From assembly GCA_016872755.1 (NCBI GenBank), contig VGZE01000008.1, positions 1-47,962 on the forward strand: 47,962 nt of DNA, written 5' to 3'. The notes below the pieces were generated by a model. That model was given only the letters and a program-made list of their open reading frames with translations, did no database searches and was not told the DNA's origin. Shown here piece after piece: positions 34,391 through 41,957 of this stretch (within the stretch, counting starts at the first letter, position 1; every line of letters starts with the position of its first letter). Source of the DNA: Planctomycetota bacterium. Lineage in GTDB: Bacteria; Planctomycetota; UBA1135; GCA-002686595. The position numbers and the translations under genes were made by a program.

Positions 34391-35266
34391 ATGAAGGCCC
34401 GCATGCTTCTCGACGCTCCGTCCCACCGCCCCTCCGGGTCGCGCCTGGCGCGCAACCTGCTCCCGCTGCTGCTCCTGCTGCTGCTCCTGCTGCTGCCCCT
34501 GCTCGTAGCCTGCGTCAGTACGCCGGTCACCGGGCGGCGCGCGCTGAACCTGCTGCCCGAGTCCCAAGACCTGGAACTCGGCATCGCCGCCTACGAGCAG
34601 GTGCTGCAGGGAGAGAAACTGGTCACCAGCGGGCCGCAGAAGGAATTGGTCGAGCGCGTGATGGCGCGCATCGCGAAGGTCGCCGAGCCACAGGGCTTCG
34701 AGTGGGAGGTGCGCCTGATCGACGACCCGAAGATGGTGAACGCGTTCTGCCTGCCTGGTGGGAAGATGGCGGTCTATACCGGCATTCTGCCGGTGGCCCA
34801 GGACGAGACCGGCCTGGCTGTCGTGATGGGCCATGAAATCGCGCACGCAGTCGCCCGACACGGCACTGAGCGCATGTCGCAGGAGATGCTGCTGCAGACC
34901 GCGCTGGGCGCCGCTCTCTCGCAGGCGAAGGAGAGCACGCAGCAACTGGCATTGGTGGGGACCGAGTTGCTGGTGTCGCTGCCATGGGGCCGCATGCAGG
35001 AGTCAGAGGCCGACCATATCGGGCTCATGTACATGGCTCGTGCCGGGTACGACCCTCGCGCCGCGGTCGAGTTCTGGAAACGGATGAGCGCGCTCGGAGG
35101 TGGCGGAGGCATGCCGGCCTTTCTGTCGACGCACCCGTCCGACGAGAAGCGCGCCAGCGACCTGAAGAAGCTGATGCCCAAGGCGCTGGCCGAGTACGAG
35201 AAGGCGATCGGCTCCCCGGCCGGCGCGGTGCCCCCCCTGAAGGGGGTGGCGCCGGGCCAGAAGTAG
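34391..35266 (+). CDS. M48 family metallopeptidase, lipoprotein
   Basis: A 291-residue zinc peptidase. A signal sequence with an extreme poly-Leu core (24-39) ends in lipobox LLVAC (Cys41), so the protein is probably lipid-anchored. HEIAH at 148-152 holds two zinc His and the catalytic Glu. The third ligand is Glu206 in ESEADHIGLMYMARAGYDPR, the M48 signature. Similar proteins (BepA, LoiP, YcaL) act in envelope quality control. The start is ATG 34391; a second in-frame ATG follows four codons later. The C-terminus is short and lacks TPR repeats. Confidence 0.92.
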   Translation: MKARMLLDAPSHRPSGSRLARNLLPLLLLLLLLLLPLLVACVSTPVTGRRALNLLPESQDLELGIAAYEQVLQGEKLVTSGPQKELVERVMARIAKVAEPQGFEWEVRLIDDPKMVNAFCLPGGKMAVYTGILPVAQDETGLAVVMGHEIAHAVARHGTERMSQEMLLQTALGAALSQAKESTQQLALVGTELLVSLPWGRMQESEADHIGLMYMARAGYDPRAAVEFWKRMSALGGGGGMPAFLSTHPSDEKRASDLKKLMPKALAEYEKAIGSPAGAVPPLKGVAPGQK

Positions 35267-35488: not shown

Positions 35489-37024
35489 TTGAAAGTCGCC
35501 GTCGTCACCCCTGAGCTGCAGTCGCTCGTGCTCCGGACCAATCTGGCCGGGGTTGCTGAATCGCTGGCAGCCGCCTTGCGCGCCCAGGGCGCCGATGCGC
35601 GGGTGTTCCTGCCGCTCCACAAGGGGCTCGAACTGTCGAAGCTGCAGCAGGTTCAACCGGTGGCCGAGCTGTCGGTCAAGGACGGCCGCGCCAAGGACGG
35701 GCAGCAGCCGATCCAGCGCTTCAAAGTGCTGCAGGGACGCCTCCCACTGGCCAAGGGCGCGACCGGCAATGCACGGGAGCTACCGGTCTACCTGTTCGAC
35801 CAGCCGGTGCTGTTTGGCACGCGCCAACCGTACAGCGGCGAAGAGGGCCCCTACCCCGACAATTGGCGCCGCTATGCGTTGTTCAGTCGGGCCGTGCTCG
35901 AGAGCCTTCCCGCGCTTGGGTTCGAGCCCGAGGTGATCCACTGCCTCGACTGGACCACGGGCCTGCTGCCGCTGTTCCACCAGGTCGAATACGTCGAACG
36001 CGAGCTCGACCACCCGGCGGCGCGCGCGGGCACCTTCTTCGGCATCCACAACCTCGCCTTGCAGGGGGTGTTCGAGCGCGAGATCCTGCCGCACGTCGGC
36101 ATCCCCCACTCCTACTTCCGCTCGGTGCGCGGGGTCGAGCTGGCCGGCAAGGTCAACTACCTGAAGGCCGGCGCCGAGTTCGCGACGATCATCGGCACGC
36201 ATTCGCCGACCCACGCGCAGAAGATCCAGCAGCGCGACCGCGGCTACGGCCTGGAAGAGGTCTTCCATCGGCGCAGCAAGGAACTGATCGGGATCACCAA
36301 CGGCATCGACTACCAGGCCTGGGACCCTTCCAACGATCCAGCCCTGCCCGCGGCCTTCTCGGCCCGCGACCGCGAATTGGCGGGCAAGAAGAAGTGCAAG
36401 GCGGTGTTGCAGCAGAAGCTCGGACTCGACACGGGCGCGCGCACGCCGCTGGCCTGCTGCATCGGGCGCTGGGATGCCGATGGCGGCATCGACCTGCTGG
36501 CCGAGATCCTGACGCCGATCCTGGAGCGCGGACTCGAGCTGGTCGTGATGGGTACCGGGTCGCCTGAGATCCAGCAGCGCTTGAAGACGATGGAAGGGAC
36601 GTTCATGGGGCGTTGTCGCGTGATCGACGGCTACCAGGTCAACGTCGCGCACCTGGTCATGGCCGGATCGGACCTGTTGGTCCTGCCGTCGCATTACCAG
36701 CCCTCGAACCCGCTCTTCGCGATCGGACTGCGCTACGGCGTCGCTCCGGTGCTCTACGCGCGCTCGGGGCTCGAGGACATCGTGCCGGATTTCGCGACGA
36801 ATCCGCGCCAGGGCCTGGGCTTCCATTTCGAGAACTACAGCGGCGACGGGCTGCTCTCGGGCATCGACAACGCGCTGAAGGCCTACAAGTCTCCGGCCAC
36901 GTGGAAGACGCTATCGCGGCGCTGCCTGGCAAAGGACTTCTCGTGGGCCAGCACCGCCGACGAGTACTTGAAGCTCTACCGACGCGTGACGCGACGCGCG
37001 AAAGCGCGCCAGGAAGCCGAATAA
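35489..37024 (+). CDS. Glycogen synthase-like (GT5) protein with altered donor-site residues
   Basis: A 511-residue GT5-fold protein. The start is TTG 35489, giving the family opening MKVAVVTPE. GT5 features are clear: EVIHCLDWTTGLLPLF, GIHNLALQGVFE, KAGAEFATIIGTHSPTHAQKI, TNGIDYQAWDPSND and C-terminal KDFSWASTADEYLKLY. Three donor-binding positions differ from active synthases. KTGGL is RTNLA (16-20). The QKG lysine is Gly332 (RWDADGG). FEPCGL of the E-x7-E motif reads YQPSNPL, with Gln404 for the Glu. Activity with ADP-glucose is therefore doubtful. It may use another donor, act on another polymer, or be a regulatory pseudoenzyme. A 6-bp hairpin (35466-35482) lies just before the start. A ROK sugar kinase follows. 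Confidence 0.85.
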   Translation: MKVAVVTPELQSLVLRTNLAGVAESLAAALRAQGADARVFLPLHKGLELSKLQQVQPVAELSVKDGRAKDGQQPIQRFKVLQGRLPLAKGATGNARELPVYLFDQPVLFGTRQPYSGEEGPYPDNWRRYALFSRAVLESLPALGFEPEVIHCLDWTTGLLPLFHQVEYVERELDHPAARAGTFFGIHNLALQGVFEREILPHVGIPHSYFRSVRGVELAGKVNYLKAGAEFATIIGTHSPTHAQKIQQRDRGYGLEEVFHRRSKELIGITNGIDYQAWDPSNDPALPAAFSARDRELAGKKKCKAVLQQKLGLDTGARTPLACCIGRWDADGGIDLLAEILTPILERGLELVVMGTGSPEIQQRLKTMEGTFMGRCRVIDGYQVNVAHLVMAGSDLLVLPSHYQPSNPLFAIGLRYGVAPVLYARSGLEDIVPDFATNPRQGLGFHFENYSGDGLLSGIDNALKAYKSPATWKTLSRRCLAKDFSWASTADEYLKLYRRVTRRAKARQEAE

Positions 37025-37046: not shown

Positions 37047-37967
37047 ATGCCGCAAGCCACGCTCGCTCGAGTCGGACTGGATGTCGGCGGCACGTCGATC
37101 AAGGCGGGGCGCATCGACGCGCGTGGCGGCATCGAGGCCGACCTCGCTGCGGTCGATATTCCGCGCGGCATCGATCCCGAGGGCTTTCTGCGCCTGCTCG
37201 TGTCGGTGGCGCGCTCGCTCGAGGCTCGCGACTCGATCGGCATCGGTATCCCGGGCCTGATCGATCGGCAGTTCGGCGGCGTGCGCAAGAGCCCCAATCT
37301 GCCGTACCTGGATCAGCTCCCGCTGCGCGCCCGCGTCGCTGCGGAACTCGGCTTCGACGAGCGCAGCGTGCACGTGGAGAACGACGCCAACGCGGCCGCG
37401 CTCGGCGAGCAGTGGCTGGGCGCGGGCAAGGGAGCCGCCGACCTGCTGTTGTTGACGCTCGGCACCGGTGTCGGCGGCGGCCTGATCCTCGGCGGCGAAC
37501 TGTACGTCGGCGACGGCATGGGAGGCGAGATCGGCCACGTGGTGATCGCGCCCGACGGCCAGCCCTGCGGTTGCGGTTCGCGCGGCTGCCTCGAGCAGTA
37601 CGCGTCGGCAACCGCGGCGCGCCGGCGCGCGCTCGAGCGCGGGCTGCCCGTCAGTGCGCCCGGGGACCTGAAACTGCTCGCCGCGCGCGCGCGCGACGGG
37701 CACGCGGCCGAACGCGCGCTGCTGCACGAGGTGGGAATCGACCTGGGCCGCGGGTTGGGCCCGGTGGTATGCCTGCTCGACCTGTCCTGCTTCGTGTTCG
37801 GCGGCGGGTTCTCGGCCGCGCTCGACGTGCTCGAGCCCGGCATTCGCGCTGGAATCCGCGAACGTTCGTTCGGCTCGCGCGCAGAGACGACGCGCCTGCT
37901 GCGCGCGACGCTCGGTCCGAGCGCCGGCTGGATCGGCGCCGCGCGCCTCGCGCACCGAGCGGCCTGA
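37047..37967 (+). CDS. ROK family sugar kinase (glucokinase-type)
   Basis: A 306-residue ROK kinase. The ATP site begins VGLDVGGTSIKAGRI (9-23). The catalytic Asp lies in VENDANAAALGE, and the second phosphate motif is LTLGTGVGGGLILGG. The zinc-binding ROK signature is present: GHVVIAPDGQPCGCGSRGCLE with the His and Cys ligands. It probably phosphorylates glucose or a related hexose in the cytoplasm. It follows the GlgA-like gene by 22 nt and they may share a transcript, consistent with a glucose/glucan role. Confidence 0.92.
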   Translation: MPQATLARVGLDVGGTSIKAGRIDARGGIEADLAAVDIPRGIDPEGFLRLLVSVARSLEARDSIGIGIPGLIDRQFGGVRKSPNLPYLDQLPLRARVAAELGFDERSVHVENDANAAALGEQWLGAGKGAADLLLLTLGTGVGGGLILGGELYVGDGMGGEIGHVVIAPDGQPCGCGSRGCLEQYASATAARRRALERGLPVSAPGDLKLLAARARDGHAAERALLHEVGIDLGRGLGPVVCLLDLSCFVFGGGFSAALDVLEPGIRAGIRERSFGSRAETTRLLRATLGPSAGWIGAARLAHRAA

Positions 37968-38000: not shown

Positions 38001-38930
38001 GTGGTCGCCCCCATCATCTCGGTTCGTGGACTCTCGAAGGTCTACGGCAAGAACCTGTTCAAGCCGGGCTTCCGCGCACTCGACTCGATCGACCTCGACA
38101 TCGAGCCCGGCTCGGTCTTCGGGCTGCTCGGCCCCAATGGGGCGGGCAAGACCACGCTGCTCAAGATCCTGATCGGGCTCGCGCACAAGACCGGCGGCGC
38201 CGCGCTCGTGTTCGGTGAACCGGCCGGGCGATCGCTTCCGCGTCAGCGCATCGGCTACCTGCCCGAGGCGCACCGGCTGCCGAACTACCTGACCGGGCGG
38301 CAGGTGCTCGCGCTGTACGGGATGATGTGCGGCCGCGACCGGCGCTGGCTCTCGACGCGCATCCCCGAGTGGATCGAGAAGGTGGGCATGAACCAGGGCG
38401 CGGACCGCAAGATCCGCGAGTACTCGAAGGGCATGCAACAGCGCATCGGGCTCGCCTCCGCGCTGATCCATGAGCCGGAGTTGATCTTCCTCGACGAGCC
38501 AACCGACGGCGTCGACCCGGTCGGTCGAGCGGCGATCCGCGAGATCGTGCTCGACCTCAAGCGCCGCGGCGCGACGGTGTTCATCAACTCGCACCTGTTG
38601 ATGGAGGTCGAGCTGATCTGCGACCGCGTCGTGATCATGGCCGGCGGCAAGGTGCTGCGCGCCGGCACGATCGACGAACTGACGCCGCGCTCGGGACGCG
38701 TGAGCTTCGAACTCGCGCCGGCGGACGAGCGCATCGACACGCTGCTGCAGGGCCTGGGCACGGAGTACTCGCGAACGCCGCGCGGCTGCGACGTGCTGCT
38801 GTCGGACAGCGAGCTCGACATCGCGATCGATCGGCTGCGCGCCGCGGGCGTCTCGATCCGCGCGATCGAGCAACGCCGCCTGACGCTCGAGCAGTCGTTC
38901 ATCGACCTCGTGAAGGGAGGCACTCGATGA
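38001..38930 (+). CDS. ABC transporter ATP-binding protein
   Basis: A 309-residue ATPase with Walker A GPNGAGKTT (44-52), Q-loop region, signature YSKGMQQRIGLASAL, Walker B LIFLDEPTDGVDP and H-switch INSHLL. The degenerate signature (YSKGM for LSGGQ) is common in ABC-2 exporter ATPases. The C-terminal 80 residues form the small extra domain seen in that group. It starts at GTG 38001. Its stop overlaps the permease start (ATGA), so they form one exporter of unknown substrate. Confidence 0.93.
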   Translation: MVAPIISVRGLSKVYGKNLFKPGFRALDSIDLDIEPGSVFGLLGPNGAGKTTLLKILIGLAHKTGGAALVFGEPAGRSLPRQRIGYLPEAHRLPNYLTGRQVLALYGMMCGRDRRWLSTRIPEWIEKVGMNQGADRKIREYSKGMQQRIGLASALIHEPELIFLDEPTDGVDPVGRAAIREIVLDLKRRGATVFINSHLLMEVELICDRVVIMAGGKVLRAGTIDELTPRSGRVSFELAPADERIDTLLQGLGTEYSRTPRGCDVLLSDSELDIAIDRLRAAGVSIRAIEQRRLTLEQSFIDLVKGGTR

Positions 38931-40501
38931 ACGCGACGATGCGCAGGGCGCTGCTGCTCGACTCGGTCTACCAGGTGCTCGACAACCGCGTCTTCCGGAT
39001 CCTGCTCGGAACGGTGCTGTTGCTGGTCTTCCTGACCTTCGCGATCGGCTTCCGCGAGGAGGAGATCGTGCTGTTGTTCGGCTGGAAGTCGTACCCCTAC
39101 GAACGGATCATCGACACCTTCGAGCTGCCGCTGCCCGCCGGCTTCTCCGAGCGCGAGGGACTGATCCGGCTGCTGCAGAAGATCTTCGTCGACAGCGTCG
39201 CCGGCTCGCTCGGGATCACGTTCGCGATCGCGGCGACCGCATTCTTCATCCCGCGCATGCTCGAGAAGGGCCTCGCCGACGGCCTGTTCAGCAAGCCGAT
39301 CTCGCGCGCCTCGTTCTACCTGGCCTGCTACCTGACCGGCGTTGGATTCGTCGGCGCGCTGGCGGTCGTGCTCGTCTGCGGCATGCACGTGGGACTGCTG
39401 GTCAGCTCCGGCTACAGCGATCCGGGCTTCCTGTGGGGCGCGCTGACGCTGACCTACGTGTTCGCGATCGTGCACGCCGTCTCGATGCTGATCGGCGTGT
39501 TCACGCGCAGCAGCGTCGCGGCGCTGCTGCTCGCACTGCTGTTCTTCATGGTCAACGGCTGCATCCACGGCGGCTGGACGGCCAAGGAGGGCGCGCTGCA
39601 GAACGAGGAATTTCAGCGCTTCCTGGCCGACCTGCCGCCCGAACCCGGCAAAGAGCGCGAGGGTCCGCCGGTTGCGCTGGTCGACGGACTGATCACGACG
39701 CTCGACGTGCTGCACTACGTGCTGCCGAAGACGACCGAAGGCGAACTGATCACCGAGCTCCTGCGTGTCAAGATCACCCGCAGCGAGCCCGACTTCTTCG
39801 ATCCCGAGTCGAAGTTGCGCATCCAGAAGTTCGCGCCGGGCACGCGCGCCGATCGCGAGCGGCCGGCGCCCGAGGTGCTCGATCTGTCGATCGCGACGAG
39901 CGCGGCGCGCTTCATGACCTGGCTGCGAGTCGAGGAAGCGGAGGATGATGTGCGGTTGTGGCTGGAGCGAGCGCCGGGGCTCTCCGGCGGCCGTTCGATG
40001 TCGGAGGCGATGGAGAAGCGCCTGCGCGACAAGCCCGGGATCGGAAAGGTGAGGCGCGATCGAACGGGCACCCGCCAATTGTCCGCGCGCACCGTGCAAT
40101 GGGAACACGCCGACGACGGCGAGGTGCACAGCCGCCGCGTGTTCGTGACTTCGGGCGACGAAGGCATCGTCGCGCTGTGCCTGGACGCCAGGGCCGACTG
40201 GGTGCCGCCCGACGCGGACAAGTCGAGGCTCGCCGAAAAATCCGGTGCCGATCTGGTGCAGGAGATCGACGCCGCCCAGTTCGAGTTCCTGCACGAGCAG
40301 TTCGAGACGCTCGAGTTCGACGAGGGCGGCAACGAGCTGTTCGGAGGTGGCGGCAACGATCCCACCCGCCACGTGCGCCAGCGCTTCGGCTGGACAGCGG
40401 AATGGAAGTACAACGCCTGGTTCTCGATCGGCTCCTCGGTCGCCTTCACCGCGCTGATGCTGCTGCTCGGCATCTGGCGCATGCGGCGCATCGACTTCTG
40501 A
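38927..40501 (+). CDS. ABC-2 type permease with large extracytoplasmic domain
   Basis: A 524-residue membrane partner of the preceding ATPase. There is one helix near the N-terminus (ILLGTVLLLVFLTFAIGF), a bundle at about 80-215 (GALAVVLVCGMHVGLLV, VAALLLALLFFMVNG), then about 270 residues of soluble, charged sequence, and a last helix (FSIGSSVAFTALMLLLGIWR). The soluble insert likely lies outside the membrane. GFREEE after the first helix and RRIDF at the end are typical of ABC-2 permeases. The substrate is unknown. Confidence 0.85.
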   Translation: MNATMRRALLLDSVYQVLDNRVFRILLGTVLLLVFLTFAIGFREEEIVLLFGWKSYPYERIIDTFELPLPAGFSEREGLIRLLQKIFVDSVAGSLGITFAIAATAFFIPRMLEKGLADGLFSKPISRASFYLACYLTGVGFVGALAVVLVCGMHVGLLVSSGYSDPGFLWGALTLTYVFAIVHAVSMLIGVFTRSSVAALLLALLFFMVNGCIHGGWTAKEGALQNEEFQRFLADLPPEPGKEREGPPVALVDGLITTLDVLHYVLPKTTEGELITELLRVKITRSEPDFFDPESKLRIQKFAPGTRADRERPAPEVLDLSIATSAARFMTWLRVEEAEDDVRLWLERAPGLSGGRSMSEAMEKRLRDKPGIGKVRRDRTGTRQLSARTVQWEHADDGEVHSRRVFVTSGDEGIVALCLDARADWVPPDADKSRLAEKSGADLVQEIDAAQFEFLHEQFETLEFDEGGNELFGGGGNDPTRHVRQRFGWTAEWKYNAWFSIGSSVAFTALMLLLGIWRMRRIDF

Positions 40502-40532
40502 CGCGCGCGGCCGATCGTATAGTGTGCGGCCC

Positions 40533-41957
40533 ATGGACCGCAGAGTCGTCGATGCGCTGCGCGCGATCGTCGGGCCACGCGGCCTGATCGAGCCCGGCAC
40601 GCGCGCGCTGCCGTACGAATCCGACGGGCTGGCGATCTACGCGCAGCGCCCCGAGCTCGTGCTGCTGCCGGCCGACACCGCCGAGACGGCCGCCTGCATG
40701 AAGATCCTGCACGACGCAGGGGTGCCGATCGTGCCGCGCGGCGCAGGCACGGGCCTGGCCGGCGGCGCGACACCCGTGGCGGGCGGCGTGATCGTCGGGA
40801 CCGCGCGCATGCGCCGCGTGCTCGAGCTCGATGTCGAAAACCGCCGCGCGCGCGTCGAGGCGGGCCTGGTCAACGTGGACCTGACCCACGCCTGCAAGTC
40901 GCATGGGCTGTACTACGCTCCCGATCCCTCCAGCCAGCAGGCCTGCACGCTCGGCGGCAATGTCGCGAACAACTCCGGCGGACCGCACTGCTTCAAGCAC
41001 GGCAACACGAGCCAACACGTGCTCGGCCTGCTGATCGTGCAGCACGACGGCACGCTGCTCGACCTGACCGCGCCGCGGCTCGATCCGCTCGGCTACGACC
41101 TCGTCGGGCTCTTCGTCGGATCGGAGGGCATGTTCGGCATCGCGACCGAGCTCGTCGTGCGCCTGGTGCCCGAAGCTCCGGTCGTCGAGACTTTCCTCGG
41201 GATCTTCGCGACGCTGGAAGCCGCGTGCGATTCGGTCAGCGACATCATCGCCGCGCGGCTGGAGCCTTCGGCGCTGGAGATCTTGGACCGGTTGACGATC
41301 GAAGCGGTCGAAGCGAGCGTCTTCGCGGCCGGTTATCCGCGCGAGGCCGAGGCGGTGCTGCTGGTCGAGGTCGAGGGCAGCGAGCCGGAAGTGGCCGGCT
41401 GCGCGCGGGCCGTGCGCGCGATCCTCGAGCAGCGTGGCGCGCTGTCGGTGCACAGCGCGCGCGACGCCGCGGCGCGCAAGAAGCTCTGGGCCGGCCGCAA
41501 GGGCGCGTTCGGCGCGATGGGCCGCGTCGCTCCGGACCTCTATGTCGCCGACGCCGTCGTGCCGCGCACGAAGCTGCGCGAGCTCGTGCTGCGCACGGTC
41601 GAGATCGCGCGCGCGCACAAGCTGCGGCTGGCGACCGTGTTCCACGCCGGCGACGGCAACCTGCACCCGAACATCTGCTACGACCGCCGCGACAAGGACG
41701 AGCTCGCGCGCGTGCTCGCCGCGGGCGACGAGATGCTCGAGCTGTGCGTGCAGGCCGGCGGCGCGCTGACCGGCGAGCACGGGGTCGGGCTCGAGAAGCA
41801 GCAGCAGATGCACTACCTGTTCAGCGACGCGGACCTGCGCCAGATGTGCCGCGCGCGCGACGCGTGGGATCCGGCGCGGCGGCTCAACCCGGGCAAGTTG
41901 ATCCCGGTGCGCGTCTGCGAGGAAATGCGCGCGGGCAGCGTGCCGGAGGGCGCATGA
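40533..41957 (+). CDS. glcD: Glycolate oxidase FAD subunit GlcD
   Basis: A 474-residue FAD-binding (type 4) oxidoreductase. FAD contacts are clear in PRGAGTGLAGGATPVAGGVI, YAPDPSSQQACTLGGNVANN and GLFVGSEGMFGIATELVVRL. The C-terminal domain has HAGDGNLHPNICYD and GALTGEHGVGLEK with the conserved catalytic His and Glu. With glcE and glcF it oxidises glycolate, or another 2-hydroxy acid such as D-lactate, to the keto acid. ATG 40533 is chosen; a -10-like TATAGT (40518-40523) sits so close that the mRNA may be almost leaderless. It overlaps glcE by ATGA. Confidence 0.95.
   Translation: MDRRVVDALRAIVGPRGLIEPGTRALPYESDGLAIYAQRPELVLLPADTAETAACMKILHDAGVPIVPRGAGTGLAGGATPVAGGVIVGTARMRRVLELDVENRRARVEAGLVNVDLTHACKSHGLYYAPDPSSQQACTLGGNVANNSGGPHCFKHGNTSQHVLGLLIVQHDGTLLDLTAPRLDPLGYDLVGLFVGSEGMFGIATELVVRLVPEAPVVETFLGIFATLEAACDSVSDIIAARLEPSALEILDRLTIEAVEASVFAAGYPREAEAVLLVEVEGSEPEVAGCARAVRAILEQRGALSVHSARDAAARKKLWAGRKGAFGAMGRVAPDLYVADAVVPRTKLRELVLRTVEIARAHKLRLATVFHAGDGNLHPNICYDRRDKDELARVLAAGDEMLELCVQAGGALTGEHGVGLEKQQQMHYLFSDADLRQMCRARDAWDPARRLNPGKLIPVRVCEEMRAGSVPEGA

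What the first reader, a model, noticed from the sequence alone, without database searches (positions are those of the whole stretch)
35489..37024. GlgA-like protein lacking three ADP-glucose-site residues
The fold-wide GT5 motifs are retained, but Lys of KTGGL, Lys of QKG and the first Glu of the E-x7-E motif are replaced by Arg16 (with GG lost), Gly332 and Gln404. All three contact the donor in characterised glycogen synthases. Loss of all together suggests a changed donor or a non-catalytic role rather than random drift.
Basis: partly seen in the sequence, partly recalled or inferred. Interest (0 to 1): 0.5.

Follow-up and report, generated by a model that had tools for sequence, protein, structure and literature searches.

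The report
Conserved glycogen-synthase lookalike missing donor site
A family of planctomycete bacteria keeps a gene that looks like glycogen synthase but has lost the part that holds the sugar donor, and some members keep it although the usual glycogen genes were not found in them, so the protein has probably taken on another job.

Summary
The ORF is real: 35489-37024 (+), 511 aa, full-length GT5 (GlgA). K305 and E377 (E. coli numbering) are lost as claimed. The first motif is misread by one position: KTGG is L15-R16-T17-N18. C379, G380 and L381 are lost too. The losses define a subgroup: of 74 distinct members none keeps more than one of eight donor-loop residues, while acceptor residues E9, L19, Y95 and D137 are near-invariant. 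The gene is under purifying selection (dN/dS about 0.10). It occurs in 75 of at least 80 sampled genomes of one planctomycete family and in no sampled genome outside it. GlgC follows a second, canonical GlgA instead: of 44 genomes 22 have both, 21 neither, 1 discordant. In seven of the 21, one of them a single-contig chromosome, no alpha-glucan family that I searched was found. A sister family has a canonical GlgA at the same locus, in an M48-glgA-GH57-glgC-ROK cluster. Best reading: a former glycogen synthase, now a non-catalytic sugar-binding protein, possibly tied to the neighbouring ROK kinase; a changed donor is not excluded.

The parts
35489..37024 (+). GT5 (GlgA-like) protein lacking the ADP-glucose donor site, 511 aa, TTG start
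   Evidence: AlphaFold2 model pLDDT 87.5, best PDB matches are GT5 synthases
35531..35542 (+). L15-R16-T17-N18 in place of K15-T16-G17-G18 (KTGG donor loop)
36467..36469 (+). R327, equivalent of Arg300 (retained)
36482..36484 (+). G332 in place of Lys305
36698..36700 (+). Q404 in place of Glu377
36704..36712 (+). S406-N407-P408 in place of C379-G380-L381
35948..35950 (+). D154, equivalent of acceptor-binding Asp137 (retained, 74 of 74)
   Evidence: residue role from PMC6210743 Table 1
34391..35266 (+). M48 metallopeptidase, conserved upstream neighbour
   Evidence: start codon chosen by me within a longer open frame
37047..37967 (+). ROK-family sugar kinase, adjacent downstream neighbour
38001..38930 (+). 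ABC transporter ATPase, conserved further downstream in part of the loci
38927..40501 (+). probable membrane partner of the ABC ATPase (ABC2_membrane_2 below cut-off)
40524..41957 (+). GlcD-like FAD oxidase, conserved downstream neighbour

Best explanation
A former glycogen synthase that has lost the residues holding the glucosyl-phosphate part of ADP-glucose, while keeping its two-domain fold and most residues that hold the acceptor sugar. Shown here: shared losses, purifying selection, conserved neighbours, no link to GlgC, retention in genomes where the alpha-glucan families searched were not found. Inferred: it descends from a glgA that stood in an M48-glgA-branching enzyme-glgC-ROK cluster; glgC and the branching enzyme left that locus in this family; it no longer transfers glucose from ADP-glucose; it works as a non-catalytic sugar- or sugar-phosphate-binding protein, probably with or on the neighbouring ROK sugar kinase, in the manner of plant STARCH SYNTHASE 5 (a GT5-related protein reported without transferase activity).
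For: None of 74 distinct subgroup sequences keeps more than one of K15, G17, G18, K305, E377, C379, G380, L381; of the 71 with letters at all eight, 69 keep none. Replacements vary: E377 to H39/Q21/N9/S/Y/L, C379 to S/T/G/A, K305 to S/G/N/C; H161 is lost in 21 of 74. Acceptor residues: E9 73/73, L19 72/73, Y95 73/73, D137 74/74. Window against same-genus relative: dN 0.050, dS 0.48, both halves alike. Tree: subgroup on one side of a single branch, support 100/100. GlgC follows the canonical GlgA: 22 both, 21 neither, 1 discordant of 44 (p = 2e-11, genomes counted as if independent). Seven of the 21 lack every alpha-glucan family searched, among them G031, the single-contig Pla163 chromosome. 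Sister family G039: canonical motifs at the syntenic locus M48-GT5-GH57 branching enzyme-GlgC-ROK. ROK adjacent in 50 of 61 loci with room.
Against: Arg300 is kept in 67 of 73 and His161 in 53 of 74, as in an active enzyme. Twelve residues are newly fixed in the subgroup, some close in sequence to former donor residues (T17, D331, H402, A411), which fits a new ligand or donor as well as no catalysis. Acceptor residue Y165 is lost in all 74. ROK was not found downstream in 4 of 61 loci and lies 2-4 kb away in 7 more; it also evolves faster (dN/dS about 0.27). Sugar binding, contact with ROK and loss of activity are untested.
Confidence: 0.55

Rival explanations
1. It is an active retaining GT-B glycosyltransferase that has changed donor (and perhaps acceptor), using the new R-R-T loop and Arg300 to hold a different activated sugar.
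For: Arg300 and, in most members, His161 and Asn246 are kept; R15 (65/73; Leu in the window), R16 (69/73) and T17 (72/73) are nearly fixed; D331, H402, A411 and Y423 are subgroup-specific and fixed; purifying selection in both halves.
Against: The E377 position, a donor contact conserved in GlgA and GlgM (PMC7137382 passage), holds six different residues; H161 is lost in 21 of 74 and N246 in 31 of 74.
Confidence: 0.28
2. It is still an ADP-glucose glycogen synthase with compensating changes.
For: Scores above the TIGR02095 subfamily cut-off; full-length GT5 fold.
Against: 21 of 44 genomes carry it with neither GlgC nor a canonical GlgA found; the eight donor-loop residues are lost.
Confidence: 0.05
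3. It is a decaying relic on its way to loss.
For: Variable residues in the donor site.
Against: dN/dS about 0.10; found in 75 of at least 80 family genomes, and in the five misses the locus's GlcD was not found or the contig ends beside it.
Confidence: 0.03
4. It is a non-catalytic protein with a role unrelated to sugars (for example a scaffold for the M48, ABC or GlcD neighbours).
For: M48 (51 of 64) and GlcD (47 of 49) are about as constant as ROK; kept in genomes without detected alpha-glucan enzymes.
Against: Four of five sugar-acceptor residues are among its most conserved.
Confidence: 0.09

Closest known systems
Bacterial glycogen synthase GlgA (GT5, TIGR02095; E. coli 2qzs, A. tumefaciens 1rzu)
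   Same: Full-length homology; GT-B fold (VIA-align Z 40.9, 466 residues, rmsd 2.8, 30% identity to 1rzu_A); four of five acceptor residues; Arg300
   Different: K15, G17, G18, K305, E377, C379, G380, L381 lost; occurrence not linked to GlgC
Plant STARCH SYNTHASE 5 / SSV
   Different: It serves starch granule initiation in plants. The bacterial protein is also kept in genomes where no glycogen enzymes were found. No sequence comparison with it was run here
Canonical second GlgA of the same planctomycetes
   Same: GT5; found in 23 of 44 tested genomes that carry the subgroup protein
   Different: About 30-35% identical, donor motifs complete in the ones read, co-occurs with GlgC

Membership tests
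GT5 glycogen/starch synthase fold family | Full-length GT5 sequence match (PF08323; TIGR02095) | tested here: met
GT5 glycogen/starch synthase fold family | GT-B two-domain fold like GlgA | tested here: met
   predicted model:
ADP-glucose glycogen synthase (GlgA) | Score above the cut-offs of the specific GlgA equivalog models of NCBIfam | tested here: not met
   all 11 such models listed score below their cut-offs
ADP-glucose glycogen synthase (GlgA) | K-x-G-G-L donor loop | tested here: not met
   L-R-T-N-L
ADP-glucose glycogen synthase (GlgA) | Lys305, Glu377 and the C379-G380-L381 loop | tested here: not met
ADP-glucose glycogen synthase (GlgA) | Arg300 | tested here: met
   R327; 67 of 73 in the subgroup
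ADP-glucose glycogen synthase (GlgA) | Co-occurrence with ADP-glucose pyrophosphorylase GlgC | tested here: not met
   of 44 genomes with the protein, 22 have no GlgC match at E 1e-20, the window's genome (87% complete) among them; GlgC follows the canonical GlgA
ADP-glucose glycogen synthase (GlgA) | Transferase activity with ADP-glucose | not testable with these tools
   needs protein
Non-catalytic GT5 (SS5-like) | Loss of donor-site residues with acceptor residues kept (my working definition) | tested here: met
   Y165 excepted
Non-catalytic GT5 (SS5-like) | Absence of activity, and alpha-glucan binding | not testable with these tools
   needs protein
Non-catalytic GT5 (SS5-like) | Common descent with plant SS5 | not tested
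   no plant sequences in the tree; the subgroup shares its locus with planctomycete GlgA, so separate origin is likely

The most novel reading that the evidence does not exclude
A whole bacterial family has turned a glycogen synthase into a conserved sensor or regulator of a sugar or sugar phosphate. The lost donor phosphate site has become an arginine-bearing anion site that reads the product of the neighbouring ROK kinase, and it is kept even where alpha-glucan metabolism is gone. It would be an independently arisen bacterial counterpart of the plant non-catalytic starch synthase.
Probability: 0.2. Interest if true: 0.7.

Novelty: new variant of a known kind. Interest (0 to 1): 0.5.

Why it matters
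The protein passes the TIGR02095 'glycogen/starch synthase, ADP-glucose type' cut-off, so automatic annotation would credit its carriers with ADP-glucose glycogen synthesis, while in 21 of 44 carriers tested neither GlgC nor a canonical GlgA was found. It also offers a tractable case of an enzyme that lost its donor site and stayed under strong selection, with the probable ancestral gene order still visible in a sister family, and with complete genomes of strains (Pla163, Pla86; cultivated as far as I recall) in which only the altered copy was found.

Tried and rejected
Pseudogene or drift: rejected by the intact frame, dN/dS and distribution. Active GlgA with local compensation: made unlikely by the GlgC pattern. 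True loss in the five family genomes without it: not shown. In G034, G122 and G142 the locus's GlcD was not found either; but it was not found in G125 either, which does carry the gene, so this is weak. In G119 and G024 the contig ends beside GlcD. One apparent exception fell away on checking: G035 looked like GlgC without canonical GlgA, but the GT5 family search found a second GT5 cut by a contig end, with the canonical KTGGLADV motif; counts were changed from 21/21/2 to 22/21/1. The 2-kb gene between this gene and ROK in some loci (read in L087 and L139) gave no Pfam match for the one copy scanned, L087. Folds absent from the structure comparison prove nothing. The first neighbourhood clustering was swamped by shadow ORFs and replaced by tblastn with the window's neighbours. 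In print: the searches listed no paper whose title or abstract start describes this subgroup (44, 63 and 81 aimed at planctomycetes); only the held open-access library was searched. I saw search listings, and passages of PMC6210743, PMC7137382, PMC11046441, PMC2576272, PMC7582286 and PMC11772324; none was read whole. That E377A strongly lowers E. coli GlgA activity is recalled; no paper read here gave it (a PDB title names the mutant).

Full report
What is there. The window is one contig (C8) of a draft genome of 3.98 Mb in 389 contigs, 87% complete. The 70 loci found in named records are planctomycete or unplaced 'bacterium' records, among them the chromosomes of strains Pla163, Pla86 and Poly30. 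The reported ORF is real and is a full-length GT5 protein. It passes the broad TIGR02095 cut-off but none of the 11 narrower GlgA/starch synthase models listed.

The residues. Against E. coli GlgA the alignment is ungapped through the first motif, so KTGG is L15-R16-T17-N18. K305 is G332 and E377 is Q404, as reported. C379, G380 and L381 are S406, N407 and P408. R300, H161 and N246 are present. Residue roles come from Tables 1 and 2 of PMC6210743 and a passage of PMC7137382: K15, G18, K305, E377, G380 and L381 are donor contacts; E9, L19, Y95, D137 and Y165 acceptor contacts. A passage of PMC2576272 agrees that K15 binds substrate and says its role had been questioned.

A conserved subgroup. 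I aligned 105 subgroup rows (74 distinct) with 30 canonical relatives; L057, a short C-terminal piece of a split gene, and L005, the window's own copy, were left out. Counts are over rows with a letter at the column. K15 is R in 65 of 73; T16 is R in 69 of 73; G17 is T in 72 of 73; G18 is N, Q, P or S except one G; K305 is S, G, N or C; E377 is H, Q, N, S, Y or L; C379, G380 and L381 are lost in all 72. Of the 71 rows complete at these eight positions (K15, G17, G18, K305, E377, C379, G380, L381), 69 keep none and two keep one; three partial rows keep none of those present. Of the 30 canonical rows 28 have all eight, one has Ile for Leu381, and L070 has six. Acceptor columns: E9 73/73, L19 72/73, Y95 73/73, D137 74/74; Y165 is lost in all 74. 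H161 is lost in 21 of 74, N246 in 31 of 74, R300 in 6 of 73. Of 11 donor columns conserved in canonical relatives 8 are lost, against 17 of 94 other conserved columns (p = 4e-4). That list adds G17 and C379 by position and omits V211; with only paper-named residues it is 7 of 10 against 18 of 95 (p = 1.5e-3). Rows are related, so these values are guides.

Selection and descent. Between the window and its same-genus relative dN is 0.050 and dS 0.48 (ratio about 0.10), both halves alike. The ABC and GlcD genes give about 0.16 and 0.14, ROK 0.27. This is one pair and one simple method. A tree of 70 rows (39 of the 74 subgroup rows, 30 canonical, E. coli) puts the subgroup on one side of a single branch with full support; it is not rooted and the stem is long. 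The AlphaFold2 model has mean pLDDT 87.5 and its best solved matches are GT5 synthases.

Distribution. In the first survey 35 of 37 genomes of the window's family carry it and 0 of 24 others do; the nearest outside match is 40% identical and canonical. In the class survey 75 of at least 80 family genomes carry it; 18 genomes without a match are unlisted and may include more of the family. In the phylum survey 21 of 392 genomes match at E 1e-90, all 21 of this family; one listed family genome (G034) does not. The scan of named genomes used two peptide patterns only and cannot show absence elsewhere.

Independence from glycogen synthesis. I searched 48 genomes, chosen by me mostly for assembly quality: 45 of the family, 44 of these with the subgroup protein, and 3 from other families. 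GlgC was called at E 1e-20, canonical GlgA from the protein searches and, for 23 genomes in doubt, from a GT5 family search (G000). Of the 44, 22 have both, 21 neither, and G003 (480 contigs) has the GlgA without GlgC. G035 joined the first group because its second GT5 is a fragment at a contig end with the canonical first motif. G034, which lacks the subgroup protein, has GlgC and no GT5 found. Of the 21 with neither, 7 have GT3 glycogen synthase, G000 among them; 6 more have phosphorylase or GH13 matches; G029 has one weak GH57 match. Seven (G008, G015, G023, G031, G077, G080, G100) show none of GlgC, second GT5, GT3, phosphorylase, GlgB, GH57 or GH13 at the thresholds used. G031 is a single contig of the length of the Pla163 chromosome; the other six are drafts at 87-92% completeness. 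GH13 was searched in 17 of the 48; GT4-type synthases were not surveyed. Genomes are not independent events, so p = 2e-11 overstates the evidence.

The locus. With the window's neighbours as queries in 70 loci: M48 upstream on the same strand in 51 of 64 loci with room; ROK within 500 bases downstream in 50 of 61, further off in 7, not found in 4; GlcD in 47 of 49. In G039, of another family of the order, the syntenic gene has the canonical motifs and the order is M48, GT5, GH57 with BE_C (branching enzyme), GlgC, ROK, GH57; its GlgC match, 409 bits, is just under the model's cut-off of 425. In two genomes of a third family M48 also precedes a canonical GT5, without ROK in the stretch read. 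The simplest history is that a glycogen cluster lost its branching enzyme and glgC here and kept the altered GT5 beside ROK; loss here rather than gain in G039 is inferred.

How it may work. A GT-B synthase closes on ADP-glucose with residues that are gone here. With variable replacements at E377, C379 and K305, transfer from a nucleotide sugar seems unlikely, while the acceptor side is nearly untouched except Y165. I therefore favour a non-catalytic sugar-binding protein, with ROK as first candidate partner. Against this, 12 residues are newly fixed in the subgroup, some near former donor residues in the sequence, so a new donor or ligand remains possible. The plant precedent is STARCH SYNTHASE 5 (passages).

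Verdict. New variant of a known kind.

Noticed in passing
own genome contig C48, 2258-6505 (locus L154): One open frame of 1415 aa joins a GT3 glycogen synthase to DUF3417 and phosphorylase domains. GT3 matches lie in frames of 1234-1702 aa in 24 of the 26 genomes with one; only this copy was scanned for domains. Synthesis and breakdown in one polypeptide would be odd.
   Followed up: partly
own genome contigs C52 (end) and C48 (start), loci L003 and L002: The two contig ends encode the same short peptide, so they seem to overlap within a GT4-like gene, preceded by a debranching-like gene and followed by GH57 and the GT3 fusion.
   Followed up: no
L070 (G043:C11:18700-21000): A GT5 of another family of the order has partial loss of the donor loop (KAGEIADV, QRG) with FEPCGL kept: possibly an independent start on the same road.
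   Followed up: no
L087:3718-5733 and L139:7516-9576: A gene of about 2 kb stands between the GT5 gene and ROK, on the same strand in L087 and the opposite strand in L139; no Pfam match for the L087 copy; gaps of similar size in L084, L089, L095, L096.
   Followed up: partly
genome G034: GlgC and GT3 present, but no GT5 of either kind found; its GT3 might use ADP-glucose, or contigs are missing.
   Followed up: no
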